In this document: in pieces, positions 10,553 through 64,000 of the stretch
How positions within the stretch are numbered: the first letter of the stretch is position 1
How the letters are laid out: each line of letters opens with the position of its first letter
Assembly (NCBI GenBank): GCA_947089145.1
Contig: CAMUJH010000003.1
Location: 1-64,000 of the forward strand
DNA from: an uncultured Hungatella sp.
GTDB taxonomy: Bacteria; Bacillota; Clostridia; Lachnospirales; Lachnospiraceae
DNA: 64,000 bases
Reading direction: 5' to 3'
The notes under the pieces: generated by a model
The model's input: only the letters and a program-made list of their open reading frames with translations
What the model was told of the DNA's origin: nothing
Database searches by the model: none
Translations under genes and position numbers: made by a program

Positions 10553-12301
10553 ATGAGAAAGACAAAGAAAGTATTGTCTATGGTTCTGGCTTCTGCCATG
10601 GCAGTGTCTCTGGCCGCCTGCGGCGGTGGCGGAAGTACTGCGGAAACCACGACTGCGGCGGCAGCAGATACAACTGCTGCGGACACGACAGCAGCGGAAA
10701 GCAAAGCAGAGGAAGAGACAACTGCAGCGGCGGCTGAATCAGACGGGTTCAATATTGCCGTATGCCTGGCTTCCGAGCCCCAGACCATTGACCCGGCTCT
10801 GAACAGTGCGGTTGACGGTGCAATTATGATCAATCACATGTTTGAGGGACTGATCAAATGGGTAGACGACGGTGAGGGCAATGCCATGCTGGCTCCAGGA
10901 CAGGCAGAGTCCTGGGAGAAGGTGGTAAATGACGACGGCACAGTAACTTATACCTTAAAAATGCGGGAAGGCATCAAGTGGTCTGACGGCAAGGATGTGA
11001 CTGCCGGCGATTTTGAATACAGCTGGAAGCGTCTGGCCAACCCGGAGACTGCAGCAGACTACTGCTACATGATCGATATGGTTCAGGGATACGCAGCTGT
11101 TGCGTCAGGGGAGGCTTCTCCAGACACTCTGGGAATCAAAGCGATTGATGACAAGACGCTGGAGATCGTACTGTCCTACGACTGCCCGTATTTTGAAGAG
11201 ATTATGGCGTTCCCGTCCACGTTCCCGGTGCGTCAGGACATGACAGAGGGAAATGACGAGTGGACCTATGATGCGGCATCCTATATTGGAAACGGGCCGT
11301 ACAAGATGAAAGAGTGGTCCCACAATGCCTACATTCTGGCGGAAAAGAATACAGAGTATTATGACTATGAGAAGCTGGGGCCGGAAACTATCCGCTTTAC
11401 CCTGCTTGATGACGCAAACGCCATGCTGGCGGCTTACAAGAGCGGCGAGCTGCAGTTTATTGAGGAAGTTCCCACAGACGAGATTGCCAATTACCTGGCT
11501 TCCGGCGAGCTGGAGATTGCAGACTATATCGGCACGTATTATGTGTGCTTCAACACAGAGGATGAAATCTTCTCCAATCCGCTGATCCGCAAGGCATTCT
11601 CCCTGGCAATTGACCGTAACTATATTGTTGAGAACGTGACTCAGACCGGAGAAGTTCCGGCTACAGGTTTTGTCCCCTCCGGCGTTTATGACGCACAAGG
11701 TTCAAGCGGAGATGACTTCCGTACTGTAGGCGGCGAGTATTACAGCGTAGACGCGGCAGACTATGAGAAAAACTGCGAGGAGGCAAGAGCTCTTCTGGCA
11801 GAGGCCGGCTATCCCAACGGAGAGGGATTCCCTACGGTTGAGTATATGTACAATACAGATGACAGGCATAAAGCCATTGGCGAAGCTTTGCAGAATATGT
11901 GGCAGACGGTTTTGAATGTTAACGTAACCCTGAACAACCAGGACTGGAACGTATTCCTGCAGACACGTAAAGACGGCGACTACCAGATTGCACGCAACGG
12001 ATGGATTGCAGACTACAATGATCCCTGCTCATTCCTGGATATGTGGTACACAGACGGCGGGAACAATGACGCCCAGTACTCTAACAAGGAATACGACGCA
12101 TTCATTGATGCAGCAAAGGCTACTTCCGTTCAGGAAGAGCGCATGAAAGCATTCCATGACGCTGAAGACCTCCTTATGGGCGCTGACAATGTTCATGCTC
12201 CTATCTATTTCTACACCCAGAAATATATGCTGGATGAGAGCATTAAGGGGATGTACTATACGCCATTAGGTTATTTCTTCTTTGGCTATACCCATAAGTA
12301 A
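10553..12301 (+). CDS. Peptide-binding lipoprotein, family 5 (OppA/DppA type)
   Basis: Extracellular solute-binding lipoprotein, 582 residues from the ATG at 10553, with AAGGAGG (10538-10544) 8 bases upstream. An upstream in-frame start at 10457 would spoil the signal peptide. Lipobox LAAC has Cys23. A low-complexity Thr/Ala/Glu linker (about 28-60) tethers the SBP_bac_5 fold, which shows EPQTIDPALNSAVDGAIM early and the family motif TYTLKMREGIKWSDGKDVTAGDFEYSWKR, split here as TYTLKMREGIKWSDG and KDVTAGDFEYSWKR. It should deliver oligopeptides to DppBCDF. Its gene is last, closed by a strong terminator. Confidence 0.92.
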   Translation: MRKTKKVLSMVLASAMAVSLAACGGGGSTAETTTAAAADTTAADTTAAESKAEEETTAAAAESDGFNIAVCLASEPQTIDPALNSAVDGAIMINHMFEGLIKWVDDGEGNAMLAPGQAESWEKVVNDDGTVTYTLKMREGIKWSDGKDVTAGDFEYSWKRLANPETAADYCYMIDMVQGYAAVASGEASPDTLGIKAIDDKTLEIVLSYDCPYFEEIMAFPSTFPVRQDMTEGNDEWTYDAASYIGNGPYKMKEWSHNAYILAEKNTEYYDYEKLGPETIRFTLLDDANAMLAAYKSGELQFIEEVPTDEIANYLASGELEIADYIGTYYVCFNTEDEIFSNPLIRKAFSLAIDRNYIVENVTQTGEVPATGFVPSGVYDAQGSSGDDFRTVGGEYYSVDAADYEKNCEEARALLAEAGYPNGEGFPTVEYMYNTDDRHKAIGEALQNMWQTVLNVNVTLNNQDWNVFLQTRKDGDYQIARNGWIADYNDPCSFLDMWYTDGGNNDAQYSNKEYDAFIDAAKATSVQEERMKAFHDAEDLLMGADNVHAPIYFYTQKYMLDESIKGMYYTPLGYFFFGYTHK

Positions 12302-26400: not shown

Positions 26401-26650
26401 AGCATACCTTTTGGCACGAAGTGCCCCGCTCCGAAGGAGCTAAAATAAGGGATGCCCTTGGGTATACCTTTTGGCACGAAGTGCCCCGCTCCGAAGGAGC
26501 TGAAATAAGGGATGCCCTTGGGTATACCTTTCGGCACGAAGTGCCCCGCTCCGAAGGAGCTAAAATAGGGGATGCCCTTGGGGTATACCTTTCGGCACGA
26601 AGTGCCCCGCTCCTGAGGGCTCTGAAGGTAAGGTGTGCCCTTTGGGTATA
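26401..26650 (+). repeat. 60-bp tandem palindromic repeat, four units
   Basis: Units begin at 26401, 26461, 26521 and 26581; the last is degenerate. Each unit has a GGTATACC-like palindrome (AGCATACC in unit 1), then GGCAC-GAA-GTGCC, GCTCC-GAA-GGAGC and an AAGGGATGCCCTT-type stem, so the transcript would be a row of small hairpins. Units 1-3 differ at only a few bases. It fills the 301-base gap between two cell wall genes. It is not CRISPR, because there are no unique spacers. Confidence 0.9.
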
Positions 26651-26671
26651 CATAAGAATTTGAGGTGCAAT

Positions 26672-46314: not shown

Positions 46315-46651
46315 GGGCCTGTACTGGTTTCGACAGGGGTCATGCAGCTGGTGAAGCTATCCGCATGCGATGCGTCAAATGGCAAACTTAAATATAAACG
46401 CTGAAGATAATTTAGCATACGCTGCTTAATTGCAGCCGTCAGCCTTAGTGCACTCACACATTAAGAACCTGGCGTCGACCATGTGAGAAACGACGTATGC
46501 AAAGCTTTGAGCATACGGGCGTAATATGAAGCTACTGAAACCGTCAGAGTGTCAGCCCCCGGACGGCGGAGGGAATGTCAATTGACTGACTATGATAGTA
46601 GAAGAACAGGGAATTGATTTTTGGACACGGGTTCAAATCCCGTCAGGTCCA
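46315..46651 (+). ncRNA. ssrA: Transfer-messenger RNA (tmRNA)
   Basis: The 5' GGGCCTG (46315-46321) pairs with CAGGTCC (46644-46650) to form the acceptor stem, with A46651 as discriminator. No CCA is encoded. The T-arm GGGTTCAAATCCC is near 46629-46641. The tag frame starts with GCA at 46382 and ends with TAA at 46427-46429, giving ANLNINAEDNLAYAA, a degradation tag ending in the usual Ala-Ala. It frees stalled ribosomes with SmpB, and RNase R is encoded in the same cluster. Confidence 0.96.
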
Positions 46652-46655
46652 GCGA

Positions 46656-55328: not shown

Positions 55329-55358
55329 GGAAGGCTTCGGGGGAGGCCTTCCTTTTTT
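55329..55358 (+). terminator. Terminator after the alpha-galactosidase gene
   Basis: GAGGAAGGCTTC and GGCCTTCC-TTTTTT form a strong hairpin with a T-run. Confidence 0.88.
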
Positions 55359-55497: not shown

Positions 55498-56952
55498 ATG
55501 AGAACAGTAAAGGAACAGGAGATCACTGCGTTGGCTCCCAACGCAACAGCAGTTGCCAATGGCAGGAAGATTTCCGCCGGCGGCGGTTTCGTAATGCGCC
55601 GGCGGTCCGAAGATGACACGTTTTACATGGGGGAATGCAAAGGCAGCGGAAAGAAAAATTATGTGGTGTCAGCAGACTATATCGATGAGGTTCAGCCGGT
55701 TTTTCGGTGCACCTGTCCCAGCCGTCAGTTTCCATGCAAACACAGTCTGGCGCTTCTCTTTGAGATTGCGGCGGGGAAAGAGTTTGAGGCTGGGGAGATT
55801 CCCCAGGATATTTTGGATAAGAGGCAGAAGAAGGCGGCCAGGGACGCAAAAAAGCAGGAGGGGACAGTAAACAGGCCTGCTTCCCCAAAAAGCCGGAATG
55901 CGTCAAAGGCAGCAAAGACCAAGAAAATAAAAAAGCAGCTGGAGGGGCTTGAACTTTTAAAACAGCTGACAGACAATCTTCTGGCAGGGGGCCTGGGGGC
56001 CATGGGAAGCGTGTCGCTAAAAACCTACCGGGATCTGGCCAGGCAGCTGGGAGACTACTATCTGCCGGGGCCTTTGATTTATCTGAACCGGCTGATTTTG
56101 GAAATGGAGGAATATCAGAAAGATCAGGATTCCGGACATTATCACAAGGCGGTGGAGATCCTTAAAAAATTGCGGGCCTTGGAGAAAAAGGCGGAGCAAT
56201 ATCTGAATGACAAACTGGAGCAGGATGCTCCGGAGGCGGATGACGATGAGCTTTATGAGGAGCTGGGAGGCATTTGGAAGCTGGAGCAGCTAAACGACCT
56301 GGGGCTTAAGAAAGAGAATGCCAGACTTTTGCAGCTGTCGTTTCAGGTAAGTTACGATCAGGCCAGAAAGGAGTATATTGATCTGGGGTTCTGGGCGGAC
56401 TTAGACAGCGGCGAAATCTGCCATACCTGTAATTACCGCCCGGTGAAGGCCCTTAAATACGTTAAGCAGGAGGATTCCTGTTTCGGGGTTGCCAAGATCC
56501 CGGTGCTGACTTACTATCCGGGAAAGGTGAACCGGAGGGTGAGATGGAACGGAGGCAGCCTGGAAGATGCGGGGACAGATGTTTACAGGGCTCTGATGGG
56601 AAAGGCTTACCCGGATCTTGTGTCAGCCGCCAAGGCAGTAAAGAATGAGATTAAGAATATCCTGTCAGAGGACTACTGCCCTGTAATGGTAGCTGTCCGC
56701 CGGATCGGAACCGTGAGGAGCGGGGAAAGGCAGGTATTTGCCGCAGCGGACAATGCGGACAATAAAGTGGTTCTTCGCAGCAGAAAAGAGTGGCAGGATA
56801 CGGTTTCCATGCTTCCCATGCTTCCGGATCACACGTTTTTGGAGGACAGCGTGGTTTTTGGACTTATGTACTATGATCCCAAAGACTGGAACATGTGCCT
56901 GCATCCCTTAAGCATTTTAAAAGAGCAGGGGATTTTAAGGCTTCTGTATTAA
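55498..56952 (+). CDS. SWIM zinc finger protein
   Basis: A 484-residue protein, first of a five-gene set. The SWIM finger has Cys71, Cys73, Cys80 and His82 in CTCPSRQFPCKH, a CxCx6CxH zinc site. A Lys-rich linker (about 110-145) leads to a long helical region with no recognised catalytic motif. SWIM domains bind nucleic acid or protein. I start it at ATG 55498, after CAGGAGC; an upstream in-frame start has no support. Homologues are usually found beside MoxR-type AAA, DUF5682 and VWA genes, as here. Function is unknown. Confidence 0.85.
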   Translation: MRTVKEQEITALAPNATAVANGRKISAGGGFVMRRRSEDDTFYMGECKGSGKKNYVVSADYIDEVQPVFRCTCPSRQFPCKHSLALLFEIAAGKEFEAGEIPQDILDKRQKKAARDAKKQEGTVNRPASPKSRNASKAAKTKKIKKQLEGLELLKQLTDNLLAGGLGAMGSVSLKTYRDLARQLGDYYLPGPLIYLNRLILEMEEYQKDQDSGHYHKAVEILKKLRALEKKAEQYLNDKLEQDAPEADDDELYEELGGIWKLEQLNDLGLKKENARLLQLSFQVSYDQARKEYIDLGFWADLDSGEICHTCNYRPVKALKYVKQEDSCFGVAKIPVLTYYPGKVNRRVRWNGGSLEDAGTDVYRALMGKAYPDLVSAAKAVKNEIKNILSEDYCPVMVAVRRIGTVRSGERQVFAAADNADNKVVLRSRKEWQDTVSMLPMLPDHTFLEDSVVFGLMYYDPKDWNMCLHPLSILKEQGILRLLY

Positions 56953-57021
56953 AAAATCATCTCACAAAATCAGGCACAGAGAGACTCCGGGAGTACATTT
57001 GCGGTGACAGGAGGGAGAATT

Positions 57022-58923
57022 GTGAATTTTAGCGCAATATATGAATTGAGAGACAGGCTGGAGGCAGCAGCCATAGCGGGGGTGAACCTTGTTGGGGAGG
57101 ATTTTCGGCTGAAAAGGGCCGTGGAGCAGATGAAGGCCCTTTCCCAGGCTTCTCCCGTGTTTGCAAAGATCTGTCAGATGGGGTGCCGGCTGACACAAGA
57201 GCACTGCCAGGACAGGGCAGGAGTGCTTTTGGACATGCTGGCCCTGGTAGACGCAGTGCTGTGCACTCAGGGAACTTTCTTGAAGGAAGGGCAGTGGGAA
57301 ACAGCCAGGGGTCCGGCATATGGGGAATGTGTGTGCACGAATTTTCCTTACAGCGCCATGGCTCCGCTTTTGGAAGCCTTTCAGGGGACAGGAAGCGGAC
57401 GGTACGGGGTGATTCGGGACGCCCACGACAGACAGCCGGAGCTGTTTCAGGACTACCGAATCAAAAGCCTTATGGTAAAGGCCCTGGGGGACAGCTATGG
57501 GGAGCTGGCGGATATGGTGGCGCAATGGCTGAAAAAGGAAGGGCCGCAGATAATCCCCCTTTTAAAACAGGGCTTTGATCCAAAGGGAAAACGGGACATG
57601 GCAAGGCGGCTTCAGGTTATTGAGGCTGTTGCAGGGGAAGAGGAAAATCAGTTTTATCTGGAAGTCCTGAAAACGGCAGGCAAGGAAGTGAAGGAGGCGG
57701 CAATTCATGCGCTGCGCTGGCATGCAGACAATGAGCAGCTTCTTCTTGACCTGGTAAAGTCAGAGAAAGGAAAGGCGAAAGATGAGGCGTACTTTTCACT
57801 GACCTGTATGGAGGGAGAGGGGGCTGCCGGGTATTGGAAAAAACAGATGGATAAAAACCCTGGGAAATGGGTGCTGTACCTGATGAATTCTCCTGCCATC
57901 TGGGCTTCGGACCTGATTGCGGATCATGTAAATAAGTGGCTGGATACGTATGAGGCGTCAGGGATTTTGTGGAAGGACCTGAAGCGGGAGGATCAGCTGG
58001 CGCTGCGGGCTCTGTGGAATGGGGCAGAGGGGAAGCATTCAGCGAAAATCTGTGGCTGCTATGAGCGGGTGTACCAGGTCATACCAAAGGAAGCGGCAGC
58101 GCGGCTTGAGAATTCTTTAAAGTGGAATATGCACCCTGCTTTATGCCAGGTGGCCGAAGAGATGTATCTGGCTCATGGAGACGAATTTTTGGCCAGCGTT
58201 TTCTGGACGGATCTGCTGACCAAGGAGCCAGACCAGGTATTTGAAAGGTTCAGCGGCTATGTGAAGCCGGAAGGCGCTTCGGGATTTATAAAACACATTG
58301 GGGGAAAGAAGCCTGATCCGTCGGGCATATTTCAAATTTTGTCCCATGTAAAATATAAGGAAGAGACGGGAAACTATGTGGTTTACAGAATGCCGGGCAG
58401 CGATGATTCCCAGACTGACATGGCGGCAGGCGTCCTGGAAAAAGGGCTGGATCTCAGATGGTATGAACTTCTGCTGAATGTGAAAAACACGTTTCCCATT
58501 CAGTGGAAGACAGCTTACTACCGTTACGGCGGCCACAGCAGCCAATATGATGCCATGCTGGAGGGGCTGCTGCGATGTGACGTGCAGTGGATACGGGACG
58601 CCTATGGGAAGTATTTCTATTGGAATGCCATGCACCGGGGCACTGAGGCCGCTGATATCCGGATTCTGAAAAAATGCGGATGGAGCGATTATAAGGGACT
58701 GCTGGCCCATGCAGGGAAACGGGATCGGACCCAGTTGGTTTATAAGGTGAAACAGATTCTGGAGGAACTGCCTTTGGGCAATGAGGAGATGGCAGAGGAA
58801 CTGAAGCTCCTTGTGGAAGGGATCGGAAAGAAGGCAGTTAACGGAGCAGGCGTTTTAGAAAGATGGGTGGATGAGCTGAAAAGCGGAACTCAGGCAGAGG
58901 AACTGAAGCAGTTTTATCGGTGA
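57022..58923 (+). CDS. Uncharacterised HEAT-repeat-like protein (DUF5691-like position)
   Basis: A 633-residue, mostly helical protein without signal peptide or TM segment. Parts such as AGKEVKEAAIHALRWHADNEQ and LLLDLVKSEKGKAKDEAYFSL (shown in pieces) look like HEAT repeats. I see no enzyme motif. The start is taken as GTG 57022 because AGGAGGG precedes it. The SWIM-AAA gene pair often encloses a DUF5691 protein, and this is probably a member, but I cannot confirm it. It may be a scaffold for the AAA ATPase. Confidence 0.65.
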   Translation: MNFSAIYELRDRLEAAAIAGVNLVGEDFRLKRAVEQMKALSQASPVFAKICQMGCRLTQEHCQDRAGVLLDMLALVDAVLCTQGTFLKEGQWETARGPAYGECVCTNFPYSAMAPLLEAFQGTGSGRYGVIRDAHDRQPELFQDYRIKSLMVKALGDSYGELADMVAQWLKKEGPQIIPLLKQGFDPKGKRDMARRLQVIEAVAGEEENQFYLEVLKTAGKEVKEAAIHALRWHADNEQLLLDLVKSEKGKAKDEAYFSLTCMEGEGAAGYWKKQMDKNPGKWVLYLMNSPAIWASDLIADHVNKWLDTYEASGILWKDLKREDQLALRALWNGAEGKHSAKICGCYERVYQVIPKEAAARLENSLKWNMHPALCQVAEEMYLAHGDEFLASVFWTDLLTKEPDQVFERFSGYVKPEGASGFIKHIGGKKPDPSGIFQILSHVKYKEETGNYVVYRMPGSDDSQTDMAAGVLEKGLDLRWYELLLNVKNTFPIQWKTAYYRYGGHSSQYDAMLEGLLRCDVQWIRDAYGKYFYWNAMHRGTEAADIRILKKCGWSDYKGLLAHAGKRDRTQLVYKVKQILEELPLGNEEMAEELKLLVEGIGKKAVNGAGVLERWVDELKSGTQAEELKQFYR

Positions 58924-59002
58924 CAGGGCCTGGCATACATATAAGGTTATAAGAGAATTCATGAATATAAGATTGGAAAGAGAAGGATAGGGGAAAGTCA
59001 AG

Positions 59003-60091
59003 ATGAGCCAAAAGAGCGTACAGAGGCTGCCTGCGGAGCAGCTGTTTCAGAGAGAACTGGATGTTTTGATTGCAAATGAGACGAACCCGGTGCCGGAGGG
59101 ATGGCGGATGTCGCCGAAATCCGTGCTCACCTATATCTGCGGGGGAAGATGCGGCGGCATGGAGATTACGCCGAAATACATCGGCAATAGGCGGTTGGTG
59201 GAGATTGCCATTGCCACTTTGGTAACTGACAGGGCGCTTCTGCTTATCGGTGAGCCGGGAACAGCAAAATCATGGCTGTCGGAGCATCTGACGGCAGCAG
59301 TTAACGGCAATTCCACAAAGGTGATTCAGGGAACTGCGGGAACTACGGAGGAGCAGATTAAGTATTCCTGGAATTACGCCATGCTTATTGCATCAGGGCC
59401 GTCAAAGGAAGCCATGATTCCCAGCCCGGTGTACCGGGCAATGGAAGAGGGCACCGTGGCAAGGGTGGAGGAGATCTCACGCTGCGCTTCAGAAGTTCAG
59501 GATGCGTTGATCTCCATTTTGTCGGAGAAACGGATCTCTGTGCCGGAGCTGGGTATCGAGGTTCCGGCACGGAAAGGATTTTCGGTGATTGCCACAGCAA
59601 ATACCCGGGATAAGGGCGTCAATGAGATGTCTGCGGCTTTGAAGAGACGCTTTAATATTGTAGTGCTTCCCGCTCCTGAAAGCCTGGAAGCGGAAATGGA
59701 GATTGTGAAGACCAGGATCACCCAGCTGGCCAAGGGCTTGGACTTAAATGCAAAGCTGCCTGAGAATGAAGTGGTGGAAAAGGTCTGTACCATTTTCCGG
59801 GAACTGCGCAGAGGGGCCACTTTGGACGGGAAACAGAAGCTGAAGACCACCTCAGGCGTTTTATCCACGGCGGAGGCCATTTCCCTTTTGGCGGGAAGCA
59901 TGGCCCTGGCAGGAAATTTCGGCAATGGGGTTATCTCAGACTATGATCTGGCGGCAGGGCTTCAGGGTGCTGTTGTGAAGGAAGACTCTAAAGATCAGAA
60001 GGTTTGGGAGGAGTATTTGGAGAACATTATGAAGAGACGGGGATCGAAATGGCTTTCCCTGTATGAAGAGTGCAAGGAGCTGAACCGCTGA
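59003..60091 (+). CDS. MoxR-type AAA+ ATPase
   Basis: A 362-residue AAA+ ATPase. Walker A is GEPGTAKS (83-90). The Walker B position reads VARVEEIS, so the usual Asp-Glu is Glu-Glu (156-157). Sensor 1 is VIATANTRDKG with Asn200, and the Arg finger region is ALKRRF (213-218). MoxR ATPases remodel or activate partner proteins together with VWA proteins, and a VWA gene lies two genes downstream. AGGGGAAAG precedes the ATG. The stop codon overlaps the DUF5682 start (TGATG). Confidence 0.9.
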   Translation: MSQKSVQRLPAEQLFQRELDVLIANETNPVPEGWRMSPKSVLTYICGGRCGGMEITPKYIGNRRLVEIAIATLVTDRALLLIGEPGTAKSWLSEHLTAAVNGNSTKVIQGTAGTTEEQIKYSWNYAMLIASGPSKEAMIPSPVYRAMEEGTVARVEEISRCASEVQDALISILSEKRISVPELGIEVPARKGFSVIATANTRDKGVNEMSAALKRRFNIVVLPAPESLEAEMEIVKTRITQLAKGLDLNAKLPENEVVEKVCTIFRELRRGATLDGKQKLKTTSGVLSTAEAISLLAGSMALAGNFGNGVISDYDLAAGLQGAVVKEDSKDQKVWEEYLENIMKRRGSKWLSLYEECKELNR

Positions 60092-62370
60092 TGGAAAAAC
60101 AGCCTTATGTATTTGGAATTCGGCATCTTTCTCCGGCTGGAGCCTGCTATGTCAGGGAATTCCTGGATAAGGTACAGCCGGATCTGGTGCTGATTGAGGG
60201 GCCGTCAGATTTTACGGATCTCATGGAGGAACTGACAGGGGAGCAGGTAAGGCTGCCGGCAGCAGTGATGGCATATACGAAGGAACTGCCTATCCGAACG
60301 ATTTTATATCCGTTTGCAGAGTATTCGCCGGAGTATCAGGCTCTTTTGTGGGCAAAGGAGCATGGACGCTTATTCAGGCTGTGCGATCTGCCGTCAGATG
60401 TGTTTTTGGGGCTGGCAGCCCAAAGAGAGAGGTGCCAGACTGAATCAAAAGGTGATGACAGCGGCCAGGAACCTTTTGATGTTTATGAGGCTTTAGATAA
60501 ACAGTGCGGTGACGGGGATCATGAAACCTTCTGGGAACGGACCATTGAGCAGTGCGCAGATGCCGCGGCATATCAAAGCGGGACCAGGGAATTTGGCCGC
60601 TGCCTTAGGGAAATATCCTTTGCCAAGGGGGAAGATGGCGCTGAAAACCTGGTGCGGGAGGCGTATATGCGCCGTAAGGTTCAGGAGGCCGTGAAGGAAG
60701 GCATTCCGGCCCATAGGATTGCGGTGATTACCGGGGCGTTTCATGTGGAAGGCATCCTTGGGGATGACCCGATAATAAGCGACAAGGAATTGGGAAACCT
60801 GCCCAGGCTGGAATCTATGAAAACGCTTATGCCATATTCCTATTACCGGCTTTCAGAGAGATCCGGTTACGGAGCGGGAAATCATGCGCCGGCTTACTAT
60901 GAATATCTGTGGCAGGGCCTGTGCAGGAAAGAGGCTGATTACGGGGCGCGCAGGTATTTAAGCGGACTGGGGGCCTATGAGCGTGCCCATGGAGGGATGG
61001 TATCTGCCGCAGAGGTTATGGAGGCAGCGCGCCTGGCCAGGGCATTGGCCCAGCTGGGCGGCAGCAGGATTCCTACCCTTCGGGATCTGCGGGATGCCGC
61101 GGTGACCTGCATGGGGCATGGGACGTTTTCAGAGATAGCCATGGCGGCGGCAGATACGGAGATAGGAACAAAAATAGGCAGCCTTCCTCAGGGAGTCAGC
61201 CAGACTTCCATCCAGTCGGACTTTTATCAGAAGCTGAAGGAACTGGGTCTGGAAAAATATAAGTCCTTAAAAGCCATGGAACTGGATTTAGATCTCAGGG
61301 AAAATTTGCGGGTGAAAAGCAGGAAGGCGGCTTTTTTGGATTTGGAGCGCTCCTTTTTCCTGCATCGGCTGCAGGTGCTGGATATTCCGTTTGCTGCTGT
61401 GCGGTCAGTAAGACAGGACAATGCTACCTGGGCGGAAAAATGGGTTCTCCAATGGATGCCTGAAGCGGAGATCCGGATTGTGGAAGCCGTGCTGAAGGGT
61501 GATACAGTAGAACAGGCAGCGGCCTTTGAGTTGAAGAAACGCATGGACGAAAGCCAGGGGATCAGCAGCCTGGCCTGCGTGGTGGAGGAGGCGTGCTGCT
61601 GCGGCATGCCCCTTGCGCTTCACTCCGCTCTTAAGGCGCTGCAGGCTTTGGCCGTGGACGCGGCTTCCATTGAGGAGATAGGAAATACGGCAGCCAGGCT
61701 GTCAGTGGTGATTCAGTACGGAGACATTCGGAAACTGGATCGGAAGCCTCTTATTCCTATTGTGTCTCAGCTGTTTTTACGGGCATGCCTGATTCTGCCG
61801 GGAGAATGCGCCTGCGATGATGAGGCGGCCGCAGTTATAGTTTCCGTTTTAGGGAAGCTTCACCAGGTAGGGGTGGCCCACGATTTTGTGGATAATGAGA
61901 GATTTTTGGATGTATTGGGTCAGATTGCGGCAAGAGATGATCTGAATACCCGGATTTCCGGTGCAGCCGCAGCAATTCTTCTGGAGCTGGGCCGCATAGA
62001 CAGTGAGGAGCTGGGCCGCCAGGTAGAACGGCGGCTGTCAAAAGGGATTCCGGCCCAGCTGGGGGCCGGGTGGTTCGCAGGGCTTTCTTCCCGCAATCAC
62101 TACGGGCTTATTGCCAGACTGTCGCTTTGGGAGAAATTAAGTGATTATCTGGACACTTTGGATGATGAGGAGTTTAAAAGGGCTCTTTTGTTTTTAAGGC
62201 GGGCATTTGCGGATTTTACTTCATCGGAAAAGGATCAGATCGCAGAAAATCTGGGAGAAATCTGGCAGGTAAACCCTCAGCAGGTCAGTGAGATGCTTAA
62301 TGATAATCTGTCCCATGAGGCCCAGGAATTTCTGGATGGCTTGGCGGATTTTGATTTTGGGGATATCTGA
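60091..62370 (+). CDS. DUF5682-like protein with TraB/Tiki-type GxxH motifs
   Basis: A 759-residue protein from ATG 60091, coupled to the ATPase gene. The N-terminal domain (about 1-230) has GIRH (9-12), Glu36 in LVLIEGPSD, and GAFH (215-218) in VITGAFHVEGIL. Two GxxH motifs and a conserved Glu are the mark of the TraB/Tiki/EreA/ChaN hydrolase group, so a metal-dependent hydrolase is possible. The remainder (about 300-759) is helical, with no known domain. The name comes from recall of the DUF5682 family; the fold is inferred. Confidence 0.75.
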   Translation: MEKQPYVFGIRHLSPAGACYVREFLDKVQPDLVLIEGPSDFTDLMEELTGEQVRLPAAVMAYTKELPIRTILYPFAEYSPEYQALLWAKEHGRLFRLCDLPSDVFLGLAAQRERCQTESKGDDSGQEPFDVYEALDKQCGDGDHETFWERTIEQCADAAAYQSGTREFGRCLREISFAKGEDGAENLVREAYMRRKVQEAVKEGIPAHRIAVITGAFHVEGILGDDPIISDKELGNLPRLESMKTLMPYSYYRLSERSGYGAGNHAPAYYEYLWQGLCRKEADYGARRYLSGLGAYERAHGGMVSAAEVMEAARLARALAQLGGSRIPTLRDLRDAAVTCMGHGTFSEIAMAAADTEIGTKIGSLPQGVSQTSIQSDFYQKLKELGLEKYKSLKAMELDLDLRENLRVKSRKAAFLDLERSFFLHRLQVLDIPFAAVRSVRQDNATWAEKWVLQWMPEAEIRIVEAVLKGDTVEQAAAFELKKRMDESQGISSLACVVEEACCCGMPLALHSALKALQALAVDAASIEEIGNTAARLSVVIQYGDIRKLDRKPLIPIVSQLFLRACLILPGECACDDEAAAVIVSVLGKLHQVGVAHDFVDNERFLDVLGQIAARDDLNTRISGAAAAILLELGRIDSEELGRQVERRLSKGIPAQLGAGWFAGLSSRNHYGLIARLSLWEKLSDYLDTLDDEEFKRALLFLRRAFADFTSSEKDQIAENLGEIWQVNPQQVSEMLNDNLSHEAQEFLDGLADFDFGDI

Positions 62371-62389
62371 TGGACGAAGGAGGACAGCT

Positions 62390-63568
62390 ATGGACATGAA
62401 AGAACGAATGAACAGGTGGCGTCTCATCCTGGGTCAGGAAAGCCAGAAGGATTTTGAGCAGATGAACAGCGGCCAGACTCTGGAGCTTTCTGCCGAGCAG
62501 TGGATGATGGATCAGGCTTTGGCTGCTATCTACAACACCCCTGCCAACGGCGGCTTTGGTTCAGGAGGGCAGGGGGCAGGGAAAGGCCCGTCAAATCCGC
62601 AGGTTACAAGATGGCTTGGGGATGTGCGGACGCTGTTTGACAAGGATCTGGTGAAGATCGTTCAGGCTGACGCTATGGAACGGTGCGGATTAAAGCAGCT
62701 GATCTTTGAGCCGGAACTATTGGAAAACCTGGAGCCGGACATGAACCTGGCGGCTACCATCCTGCTTTTAAAGGATCAGGTTCCAAAAAGAAGCAAGGAG
62801 AGCGTCCGGGAATTTATGAAGAAGATCGTGGAGGAGATTAACCGGCTGCTGGAAAGCGATATAAAGAGGGCAGTGACGGCTGCCGTGAACAGGCGGCAGC
62901 ATTCGCCGGTTCCCTCTGCGTCAGCGCTGGATTTTCAGACTACCATACGCAGAGGGATTAAGAACTACAGGCCGGAGTTAAAAAAGATCATTCCTGAGCA
63001 TTATTATTTTTTTGACCGAACCTCTGTTACGGCTGCCAACAAATACACCATTATTCTGGACGTGGATCAGAGCGGCTCCATGGGAGAGTCCGTGATTTAT
63101 TCCTCTATTATGAGCTGCATATTGGCCAGCATGGCAGCAGTGAAAACCAGGATCGTGGCTTTTGACACAGAGGTGGTGGATCTGACGGACAAGTGCCAGG
63201 ACCCGGTGGATCTGCTGTTTGGCTTTCAGCTGGGAGGCGGCACGGATATTAATAAGTCAGTGGCTTACTGCAGCCAGTTTATAGAGAATCCCAAGAAGAC
63301 GCTTCTTTTTTTGATAAGCGATCTGATGGAGGGAGGAAACCGGGGGGCACTATTAAGAAGGCTGTCGCAGCTTAAAGATGACGGGGTGACAGTAGTGTGT
63401 CTTTTGGCCATTGCTGATGGGGGAAAACCCTATTATGATGCTCAGATGTCCGCAAAGATTGCAGGTATGGGGATTCCGTGCTTTGCCTGCAGTCCTCAGA
63501 AACTGCCGGAACTTTTGGAAAGGTCTTTGAAGGGACAGGATCTTTTTGCAATGGCGGGGGAGAAGTGA
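62390..63568 (+). CDS. VWA domain protein with complete MIDAS
   Basis: A 392-residue cytoplasmic protein. The N-terminal helical region (about 1-205) has a Gly-rich patch at 54-66. The VWA domain (about 215-385) starts TIILDVDQSGSMGES with DxSxS at 226-230, then Thr285 in LGGGTD and Asp311 in LISD, so the metal-ion-dependent adhesion site is complete. VWA proteins of this kind work with MoxR ATPases. AAGGAGG at 62377-62383 supports ATG 62390. It is the last of five same-strand genes. Confidence 0.9.
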   Translation: MDMKERMNRWRLILGQESQKDFEQMNSGQTLELSAEQWMMDQALAAIYNTPANGGFGSGGQGAGKGPSNPQVTRWLGDVRTLFDKDLVKIVQADAMERCGLKQLIFEPELLENLEPDMNLAATILLLKDQVPKRSKESVREFMKKIVEEINRLLESDIKRAVTAAVNRRQHSPVPSASALDFQTTIRRGIKNYRPELKKIIPEHYYFFDRTSVTAANKYTIILDVDQSGSMGESVIYSSIMSCILASMAAVKTRIVAFDTEVVDLTDKCQDPVDLLFGFQLGGGTDINKSVAYCSQFIENPKKTLLFLISDLMEGGNRGALLRRLSQLKDDGVTVVCLLAIADGGKPYYDAQMSAKIAGMGIPCFACSPQKLPELLERSLKGQDLFAMAGEK

Positions 63569-63698: not shown

Positions 63699-64000
63699 TC
63701 AGAGATGGCTTTCTTTAGCTTTTAAAAGTGCTGTAAGACGCTGGACTTCCTGCTCCAGGCTTTGGTTTTCTGTTTCTAATGCTTTGGCTTTGCTTTCCAA
63801 AACCTGTTTTTGGGTTTCCCAGCCTTTTGTCCTGCTTTCAAGATCCCTGGTGGTGTTTTCCAAGTCTTTGGTGGTGATTTCTAAGTCTTTGGTGGTGATT
63901 TCTAAGTCTCTGGTGGTGTTTTCCAAGTCTTTGGTGGTGTTTTCTAAGTCTTTGGTGGTGTTTTCCAAGTCTTTAGTGGTGGTTTCCAGATTACGAGTTG
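63699..64000 (-). CDS. Partial coiled-coil protein with tandem heptad repeats
   Basis: The reading frame is open to the window edge, so the start lies outside; only the C-terminal 99 or so residues are visible. At least seven 7-residue units of the form LE-x-TT-K/R-D are encoded by 21-bp DNA repeats (about 63838-63990), followed by ETENQSLEQEVQRLTALLKA, a continuous coiled coil. It ends with stop 63699-63701. The TTG at 63966-63968 is one repeat codon, not a reliable start. Function is unknown. It could be a surface, phage-tail or structural protein, or an expandable repeat. Confidence 0.6.
   Translation of the reverse strand, partial: TRNLETTTKDLENTTKDLENTTKDLENTTRDLEITTKDLEITTKDLENTTRDLESRTKGWETQKQVLESKAKALETENQSLEQEVQRLTALLKAKESHL

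What the first reader, a model, noticed from the sequence alone, without database searches (positions are those of the whole stretch)
55498..63568. Five-gene SWIM / HEAT-like / MoxR AAA / DUF5682-like / VWA system
Five large genes lie in one direction with no other gene between them: SWIM zinc finger, HEAT-like protein, MoxR-type ATPase, a DUF5682-like GxxH protein, and a VWA with full MIDAS. The ATPase and DUF5682-like genes overlap by one base. MoxR-VWA pairs are known to act as chaperone-like remodelling machines (established for the family). The other three could provide nucleic-acid binding, scaffold and hydrolase functions. I know of no experimentally assigned function, so this is the best candidate for an undescribed system, possibly a stress or defence response. 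That last part is inference.
Basis: partly seen in the sequence, partly recalled or inferred. Interest (0 to 1): 0.85.

Follow-up and report, generated by a model that had tools for sequence, protein, structure and literature searches.

The report
Widespread five-gene bacterial remodelling machine
These five neighbouring genes are one form of a five-part protein machine found across many bacteria (E. coli carries a version called yeh, and desert Deinococcus switches on what appears to be the same set after radiation), whose job is still unknown but may well involve handling DNA or protein damage.

Summary
In detail: five same-strand genes at 55498-63568 encode a SWIM-zinc-finger protein (S), a HEAT-repeat protein (H), a MoxR-type AAA+ ATPase (A), a true DUF5682 protein (D) and a VWA protein with intact MIDAS (V). 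They form a tightly kept module: all five lie together in 60 of the 80 related loci returned; 13 of the other 20 begin at a contig end. In six of the seven remaining, the genome holds A, S and H elsewhere. Among 41 near relatives the same 11 genomes have D and S; none has only one.
It is not wholly undescribed. E. coli yehI-L-M-P-Q is the same kind of set with another scaffold protein. The Deinococcus operon ddrTUVWX (PMC5552922), radiation-induced and of unknown function, appears to be another form. I recognise three scaffold subtypes: HEAT (the window), DUF5691 and DUF4132.
New here: D has an invariant GxxH/Tiki-TraB-like putative active site, and S is predicted to end in a tandem OB-fold resembling HIN-200/RPA DNA-binding domains. 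Best explanation: a genome-stress-linked AAA+/VWA remodelling machine with a hydrolase subunit. Phage defence is not supported: the E. coli version is near-universal, and no defence neighbourhood was found.

The parts
55498..56952 (+). S: SWIM zinc-finger protein, 484 aa, with a predicted C-terminal tandem OB-fold
   Evidence: Pfam SWIM 9.6e-05; SWIM in 43 of 43 family members; AlphaFold model pLDDT 89
55708..55743 (+). SWIM core CxC...CxH (C71, C73, C80, H82 of S, invariant in 43 rows)
56308..56949 (+). C-terminal part of S, predicted tandem OB-fold like HIN-200/RPA
   Evidence: secondary structure; Foldseek vs PDB top hits are HIN-200 domains (p204, IFI16, MNDA by title), best E 1.5e-4, prob 1.00, TMt 0.2-0.5, rmsd 7-11 among the 22 hits at E<=0.001
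57022..58923 (+). H: HEAT-repeat scaffold protein, 633 aa
   Evidence: 28 of 47 family members match HEAT_2, 1 of 47 matches DUF5691; profile matches alphaRep/HEAT chains
59003..60091 (+). A: MoxR-type AAA+ ATPase of the YehL kind, 362 aa
   Evidence: AAA_5 2e-39, bpMoxR 2.5e-07; 39% identical to YehL; profile matches midasin AAA, E 6.5e-20
59249..59272 (+). Walker A GEPGTAKS of A
   Evidence: S90 is T in 2 of 94 relatives; one row has a gap
60091..62370 (+). D: DUF5682 protein, 759 aa: N-terminal GxxH/Tiki-TraB-like alpha/beta domain, C-terminal helical solenoid
   Evidence: PF18934 7.7e-151; model pLDDT 87
60733..60744 (+). GxxH motif (G215..H218) of D; with R11, H12, E36, D99, E153, R189, E190 the putative active site
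   Evidence: no substitution at these positions in 101 relatives, one gap at R11 and H12
62390..63568 (+). V: VWA (CoxE-type) protein, 392 aa
   Evidence: VWA_CoxE 1e-40; 31% identical to YehP
63065..63079 (+). MIDAS DxSxS (D226, S228, S230 of V)
55339..55352 (+). terminator-like hairpin separating the operon from the upstream GH36 gene
   Evidence: pattern match only

Best explanation
The five proteins work as one nucleic-acid-linked remodelling machine of the genome/DNA-damage stress response. A MoxR hexamer (A) drives a VWA adaptor (V) whose MIDAS captures a target. The SWIM plus tandem-OB protein (S) brings the machine to DNA, perhaps single-stranded or damaged DNA, or to a nucleoprotein. 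A helical scaffold (H; replaced by DUF5691 or DUF4132 in other subtypes) holds the parts together. D, with a GxxH/Tiki-TraB-like active site on a helical solenoid, hydrolyses the substrate that A and V remodel, most likely a peptide bond. Shown by computation: one conserved module, subunit exchange, fusions, conserved motif residues. Predicted only: the OB-fold and the Tiki-like fold. From papers: radiation induction of what I take to be the Deinococcus form. Inferred: the shared complex, hexamer, DNA targeting, the hydrolase reaction, the substrate.
For: Module: S, H, A, D, V together in 60 of 80 loci; A, S and H in 11 of 11 genomes searched, six of them with split genes; D and S in the same 11 of 41 relatives, no discordance. 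Fusions: SWIM-DUF5691 in Hymenobacter, D-VWA in Streptomyces, SWIM part-HEAT in Holdemania. DNA link: S model matches HIN-200 and RPA; the DUF4132 scaffold of Agrobacterium carries a WGR domain; ddrTUVWX is radiation-induced under IrrE/DdrO; D. taeanensis L101 has its best 20-kb match to the RDR motif 35 bp before S; molR is listed among LexA-regulated genes. Hydrolase: no substitution at R11, H12, E36, D99, E153, R189, E190, H218 in 101 sequences; weak ChaN/Tiki (7 of 48) and TraB (3 of 48) matches; a TraB-family protein is the top viral fold match, prob 1.00, E 6.4e-3.
Against: No SOS-type box before the window operon; 2 of 56 upstream regions have GAACN4GTTC, both Wohlfahrtiimonas; no strict gamma or Gram-positive LexA box in 23 starts of the other subtypes, one alpha-type match in an actinobacterium. 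Damage control is thus reported for Deinococcus only and could be local wiring. I did not see D. deserti sequences: ddrTUVWX is matched by gene count, first and last product and the L101 operon; genes 2 and 3 are called only 'conserved protein', no ATPase is named, and Deide_18700 is absent from the text. D has no PDB fold match at E<=0.001; at the threshold unrelated families also match one or two members. The HIN-200 match is partial (TMq about 0.2) and not backed by sequence. Carriers are few: 5 of 299 own-phylum and 12 of 299 Pseudomonadota genomes, centres included.
Confidence: 0.42

Rival explanations
1. A general protein-quality or stress chaperone-protease: A and V unfold or extract damaged protein complexes, D cuts them, and the SWIM/OB part binds protein rather than DNA.
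For: MoxR-VWA pairs remodel protein complexes (RavA-ViaA; PMC3893208 passages; NorQD papers seen in a listing only). Hsp33 is found in 3 of 84 scanned flanking or inserted proteins. D is Tiki/TraB-like.
Against: S carries a SWIM finger plus a predicted OB pair like DNA-binding HIN domains; WGR in one scaffold; Deinococcus places what looks like this operon in the radiation regulon.
Confidence: 0.22
2. A metallocofactor-insertion chaperone, like CoxDE or NorQD, for example for a molybdoenzyme: V is of the CoxE family and the E. coli WGR/DUF4132 genes have been called molR (that yehF/H/I are molR genes is partly recalled).
For: V is VWA_CoxE; DUF4132/WGR genes yehF, yehH, yehI precede yehL; the title of the molR paper in reference lists speaks of molybdate use.
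Against: No neighbour cluster recurs in more than 6 loci; none of the 25 listed of 83 neighbour Pfam families is a molybdoenzyme by name; D. radiodurans moeA and moeB did not follow DdrO; a SWIM/OB subunit is unexpected.
Confidence: 0.13
3. An anti-phage or conflict system analogous to the MoxR-vWA ternary systems of Kaur et al. 2020.
For: Patchy (11 of 25 genomes of the window's genus); tree suggests transfer between phyla; A passes the Pfam cut-off for bpMoxR, 30.4 against 27 bits.
Against: E. coli yehLMPQ: match in 5301 of 5426 genomes, 5162 at 80% or more coverage. No system protein matches a PADLOC model better than E 0.0055. Each of the 12 PADLOC models hit at E<=1e-10 is matched by 1 of 84 neighbours. 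No VMAP, iSTAND, FtsH or beta-propeller domain among the Pfam matches.
Confidence: 0.1

Closest known systems
Escherichia coli yehI-yehK-yehL-yehM-yehP-yehQ
   Same: A, D and V are homologous (39, 27, 31% identity) in the same order A-D-V; a SWIM gene and a large scaffold gene complete the set
   Different: Scaffold is DUF4132 (YehI), not HEAT; YehQ shares only the SWIM part with S (hhalign 57%, E 1e-4); S follows V; near-universal in E. coli, patchy in the window's genus
Deinococcus ddrTUVWX (Deide_18730-18690)
   Same: Five genes, SWIM first and VWA CoxE-like last (PMC5552922 passages). D. taeanensis L101 has SWIM-DUF5691-AAA-DUF5682-VWA
   Different: DUF5691 scaffold (in L101) instead of HEAT; RDR-motif control, not found before the window operon; an extra small ORF in L101
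YehL subfamily of MoxR ATPases
   Same: A is closest in kind to YehL; the subfamily is named in PMC3893208 (passages)
   Different: The passages define the ATPase subfamily, not the five-part set
MoxR-vWA ternary conflict systems (VMAP, iSTAND, FtsH, beta-propeller; PMC7159879 passages)
   Same: MoxR-vWA core with further partners
   Different: Third partners differ; none of YehL, SWIM, DUF5682, DUF5691 occurs in that paper's main text
NorQD, CoxDE, RavA-ViaA, midasin
   Same: AAA+ plus VWA remodelling pair; A profile matches midasin
   Different: No SWIM/OB or GxxH subunit (general knowledge)

Membership tests
MoxR AAA+ ATPase, YehL kind | AAA+ Walker A/B, sensor, arginine residues and closeness to YehL | tested here: met
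   G86, K89, E156, E157, N200, R202, R215, R216 without substitution in 94 relatives, one gap at G86 and K89; 39% identity to YehL
MoxR AAA+ ATPase, YehL kind | Operon with a MIDAS VWA partner | tested here: met
   D226 of V without substitution, one gap, in 94
DUF5682 (PF18934) | Match above the gathering score over most of the model | tested here: met
   504 bits vs cut-off 26, model 1-695 of 727
Tiki/TraB/ChaN (GxxH) superfamily | GxxH motif with conserved His/Glu (motif recalled) | tested here: met
   H12, E36, G215, H218 without substitution in 101 relatives
Tiki/TraB/ChaN (GxxH) superfamily | Fold and sequence match | tested here: inconclusive
   ChaN 7 of 48 members, best 1.8e-4; TraB 3 of 48, best 0.0093; viral TraB top hit E 6.4e-3; no PDB match at E<=0.001
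Tiki/TraB/ChaN (GxxH) superfamily | Hydrolase activity | not testable with these tools
   needs an assay
HIN-200/RPA-like tandem OB proteins (S) | Two successive OB-folds | tested here: met
   by prediction only: beta(3)-alpha-beta(2) twice and Foldseek E 1.5e-4 with partial superposition
HIN-200/RPA-like tandem OB proteins (S) | Sequence homology | tested here: not met
   sequence profile finds no HIN or RPA chain at E<=1; so 'OB-like', not a HIN family member
HIN-200/RPA-like tandem OB proteins (S) | DNA binding | not testable with these tools
   needs an assay
ddrTUVWX | SWIM, scaffold, ATPase, DUF5682, VWA in one operon | tested here: met
   window; Deinococcus L101; D. deserti sequence itself not seen
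ddrTUVWX | RDR motif in promoter | tested here: not met
   window upstream best 10 of 15; L101 13 of 15
MoxR-vWA ternary conflict systems | VMAP, iSTAND, FtsH or beta-propeller third component | tested here: not met
   no such domain among Pfam matches of the five proteins up to E 0.1
PADLOC-listed defence systems | Significant PADLOC match | tested here: not met
   best E 0.0055

The most novel reading that the evidence does not exclude
A bacterial DNA-damage sensor-effector: a SWIM/tandem-OB protein with a fold like mammalian HIN-200 DNA sensors detects aberrant or single-stranded DNA and, through a MoxR-VWA motor and an exchangeable helical scaffold, switches on a Tiki/TraB-type metalloprotease (DUF5682) that remodels or destroys nucleoprotein targets. 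It would be a protein-remodelling branch of the damage response spread over many phyla, including E. coli yeh.
Probability: 0.18. Interest if true: 0.88.

Novelty: new variant of a known kind. Interest (0 to 1): 0.66.

Why it matters
It links three sets of orphan genes: E. coli yehI/LMPQ with its MolR-like neighbours, what appears to be Deinococcus ddrTUVWX, and the operon in gut Clostridia. The result is one five-part machine with a shared A-D-V core, a SWIM subunit and an exchangeable scaffold. It gives D a putative active site and S a putative DNA-binding fold. That makes the function of a nearly universal E. coli operon testable with simple deletions in laboratory strains.

Tried and rejected
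Defence system: PADLOC on the five proteins and on 84 flanking or inserted proteins gave no support. The 84 are hand-picked from the 259 mechanically chosen neighbour ORFs and come from loci L020-L070 only, so the later loci (most Paenibacillus, Bacteroidota, Planctomycetota) were hardly sampled. Viral contigs had 38 pattern matches but no relative. The one phage-collection hit (1 of 50,697 records), MT835988, is an unverified faecal scaffold with A-D-V; I think it more likely bacterial DNA.

SOS control: boxes sought before 56 type I operons and 23 starts of other subtypes; not enriched (relaxed CTGN10CAG 4 of 23 against 2.2 expected). The E. coli yehF box is a relaxed match; that it is the published molR box is recalled.

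Homology of scaffolds: H vs DUF5691 vs DUF4132 by hhalign 0.4-4%, so they are treated as replacements, not relatives. YehQ vs S with one YehQ sequence gave nothing; a six-row YehQ-type profile gave a weak SWIM-region match.

Literature: searches. One search found no paper with DUF5682 or DUF5691. For yehL/M/P/Q/I, one search lists 6 papers with two or more terms and one search lists 40 of 693 with one or more (most of those listed are other uses of the letters); none of those listed gives a function, but the rest were not seen, and only open papers are held. Listings, abstract starts or passages were read; no paper was read whole. Snider and Houry 2006 is known only through citations and recall.

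Corrected counts: one search hid genes by an overlap filter (L096 and the fused L088); one search recounts without it. Wrong frames: one search used slices of L177, L100 and L102 that held stops; one search dropped or corrected them.
Full report
WHAT IS THERE. Five + strand genes, 55498-63568, with short gaps or one-base overlap: S (SWIM, 484 aa), H (HEAT, 633 aa), A (MoxR-type AAA+, 362 aa), D (DUF5682, 759 aa), V (VWA_CoxE, 392 aa). Pfam supports S, A, D and V directly. H has no hit itself, but 28 of 47 family members match HEAT_2, and its profile matches HEAT-type alphaRep chains. The genome (87% complete) has one DUF5682 gene. The nearest named relatives of D in a 61-row tree are Lachnospiraceae (Hungatella-labelled bins).

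IT IS A REAL MODULE. All five families are found in 60 of 80 loci, all hits on one strand (a recount without its overlap filter). In the filtered listing (window and E. coli left out) the order is S-H-A-D-V in 50, the same with two or three H copies in 5, and H-S-A-D-V in 3; the two others are L088, where one ORF holds S and H, and L096. In L088 only the SWIM third of S (positions 2-120 of 479) is matched. Of the 20 incomplete loci, 13 have 144 bases or fewer before the first found gene (L032, L038, L040, L041, L044, L047, L050, L053, L054, L057, L060, L062, L079). Seven have room upstream but lack partners: L070, L071, L076 and L081 (8.7 kb or more), L072, L083 and L091 (2.5-3.7 kb). The genomes of six of these seven, and of five others, were searched: A, S and H were found in 11 of 11, the H match of L083's genome being partial (269 of 617 positions). 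The genome of L091 was not searched, nor was VWA in any. In 41 near relatives the D-positive and S-positive sets are the same 11 genomes; all 11 belong to the 25 genomes of the window's genus, so these are not independent events. In the own-phylum sample, 5 of 299 genomes pass the D cut-off and 3 more match weakly. S matches 14 of 299 there: the window genome and G219 strongly, 12 others weakly (best 2.2e-27, then 1e-7 or weaker) and without strong D. Of the other strong-D genomes, G156 is a contig-end fragment, and G105 and G066 carry the YehQ type instead. Two neighbours per side were clustered: no cluster recurs in more than 6 loci, so the module ends at five genes.

THREE SUBTYPES. With profiles for the other scaffolds (most rows named here also helped to build those profiles), type I is S-HEAT-A-D-V (the window, Clostridia, many Paenibacillus, Bacteroidota, Planctomycetota, Fusobacterium L105). 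Type II is S-DUF5691-A-D-V (Rhizobium L100, Deinococcus L101, Hymenobacter L102, L169, L170, L171, L173, L174). Type III is DUF4132 with A-D-V and a YehQ-type SWIM (E. coli L001; L103, L167, L168, L172, L175, L176, L177, L179; Streptomyces L104 with DUF4132 annotated upstream). Of 21 loci outside the 80 (L001, L100-L105, L167-L180), 19 have all five roles, counting the annotated DUF4132 of L104. L178 and L180 run off the fetched stretch. S of types I and II are clearly related (hhalign 99.9%, E 6e-33); types I and III share only the SWIM region (57%, E 1e-4); the scaffolds show no homology (0.4-4%). In Rhizobium L100 the SWIM gene is covered by two overlapping ORFs. SWIM-DUF5691 is fused in Hymenobacter (Pfam SWIM there is below cut-off, 15.7 against 19.6 bits, but the S profile matches at 5e-30) and D-V in Streptomyces. 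In a D tree (61 rows, thinned, rows of the 80 outside 700-900 aa left out, quick method) the type I rows group together (support 99), apart from type II rows and YehM, but YehM and the type II rows are flagged as long branches. Fusobacterium and Desulfovibrio rows lie among Clostridia and Wohlfahrtiimonas beside Bacteroidota, which suggests transfer.

WHAT THE PARTS DO. D: across 80 type I and 21 other sequences (D identities between types as low as 21-27%), R11, H12, E36, D99, E153, R189, E190, G215 and H218 show no substitution (one gap at R11 and H12). The pattern (GIRH..SP, LIEG, GxxH) resembles Tiki/TraB/ChaN enzymes (motifs recalled). Weak Pfam matches agree (ChaN 7 of 48, best 1.8e-4; TraB 3 of 48, where other families also match one or two members), as does a viral TraB fold match (E 6.4e-3, prob 1.00). 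PDB gave nothing at E<=0.001, in my view because the C-terminal solenoid dominates. A and V keep their catalytic and MIDAS residues apart from gaps, two S90T in A and four substitutions at T285 of V; the A profile matches midasin. S: the model (pLDDT 89) shows two beta(3)-alpha-beta(2) units after the SWIM and a helical part. Foldseek's 22 matches at E<=0.001 are, by title or recall, HIN-200 domains (p204, p205, IFI16, MNDA and kin) and one RPA. This is a fold resemblance only: TMt 0.2-0.5, rmsd 7-11, no sequence match.

BIOLOGICAL CONTEXT. E. coli yehLMPQ is matched in 5301 of 5426 genomes, 5162 at 80% or more coverage, 5320 of 5322 places chromosomal. It is dispensable, being inside a deletion of strain DGF-298 (PMC10652928 passage), and a deletion with yehM and yehL is conserved in Shigella sonnei lineages 2 and 3 (PMC12795559 passage). 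[quoted passage not shown] its first gene is SWIM and its last VWA CoxE-like; the three between are 'conserved protein' or not in the text (PMC5552922 passages). I identify it with type II from these descriptions and from D. taeanensis L101, whose best RDR-motif match in 20 kb (13 of 15) lies 35 bp before S; shuffles reach 13 or more in 6 of 30, so position rather than score carries the weight. A DUF4132 gene and a WGR gene of D. radiodurans are also DdrO-controlled (PMC8533742 passages), and molR is listed as LexA-regulated in E. coli (PMC11039860 passage). Delta-molR1 has a synthetic growth defect with delta-lepA (PMC4245954 passages), which does not point to one pathway. Against a general damage link: no SOS box before the window operon, and little elsewhere.

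DEFENCE. Not supported: PADLOC, sampled neighbours (YebC in 4, response regulators in 4, Hsp33 in 3 of 84 and many singletons; 25 of 83 families shown), no viral relatives in a pattern-limited scan, 36 of 72,556 plasmid records, several being chromosome-sized. For defence: patchiness within the genus (11 of 25) and apparent transfer between phyla.

VERDICT. It is a new (HEAT) variant of a known but uncharacterised kind. Most likely mechanism: a MoxR-VWA remodelling machine, brought to nucleic acid by S, feeding a GxxH hydrolase, in genome-stress physiology (0.42). The module claim itself I hold at about 0.95.

Noticed in passing
63815-63988: 21/42-bp tandem repeat just after V; in the longer locus L181 it lies in a minus-strand ORF (10699-12048) whose C-terminus repeats a 7-residue unit (TTKDLEN-like), so probably a coiled coil.
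   Followed up: partly
26404-26651: Tandem repeat of 60 bp, 4.1 copies, 91% matches, between two ORFs.
   Followed up: no
46315-46654: tmRNA gene, tag AEDNLAYAA.
   Followed up: no
86-327: T-box leader.
   Followed up: no
L042:2932-8654 and L094:2171-8736: The HEAT gene is triplicated in tandem within the operon (and duplicated in L039, L055 and, with one short copy, L058), as if scaffold copy number varies.
   Followed up: partly
L021:7186-8883 and L057:3499-6836: Extra genes inserted inside the operon (566-aa gene between H and A; 398-aa, 243-aa and 466-aa genes between D and V).
   Followed up: no
L106 (MT835988.1): Record labelled Bacteriophage sp. (unverified faecal scaffold) carrying A-D-V; likely bacterial DNA mislabelled as phage.
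   Followed up: partly
L001:449-468: LexA-box-like sequence just before E. coli yehF, a WGR gene two genes upstream of yehI.
   Followed up: partly
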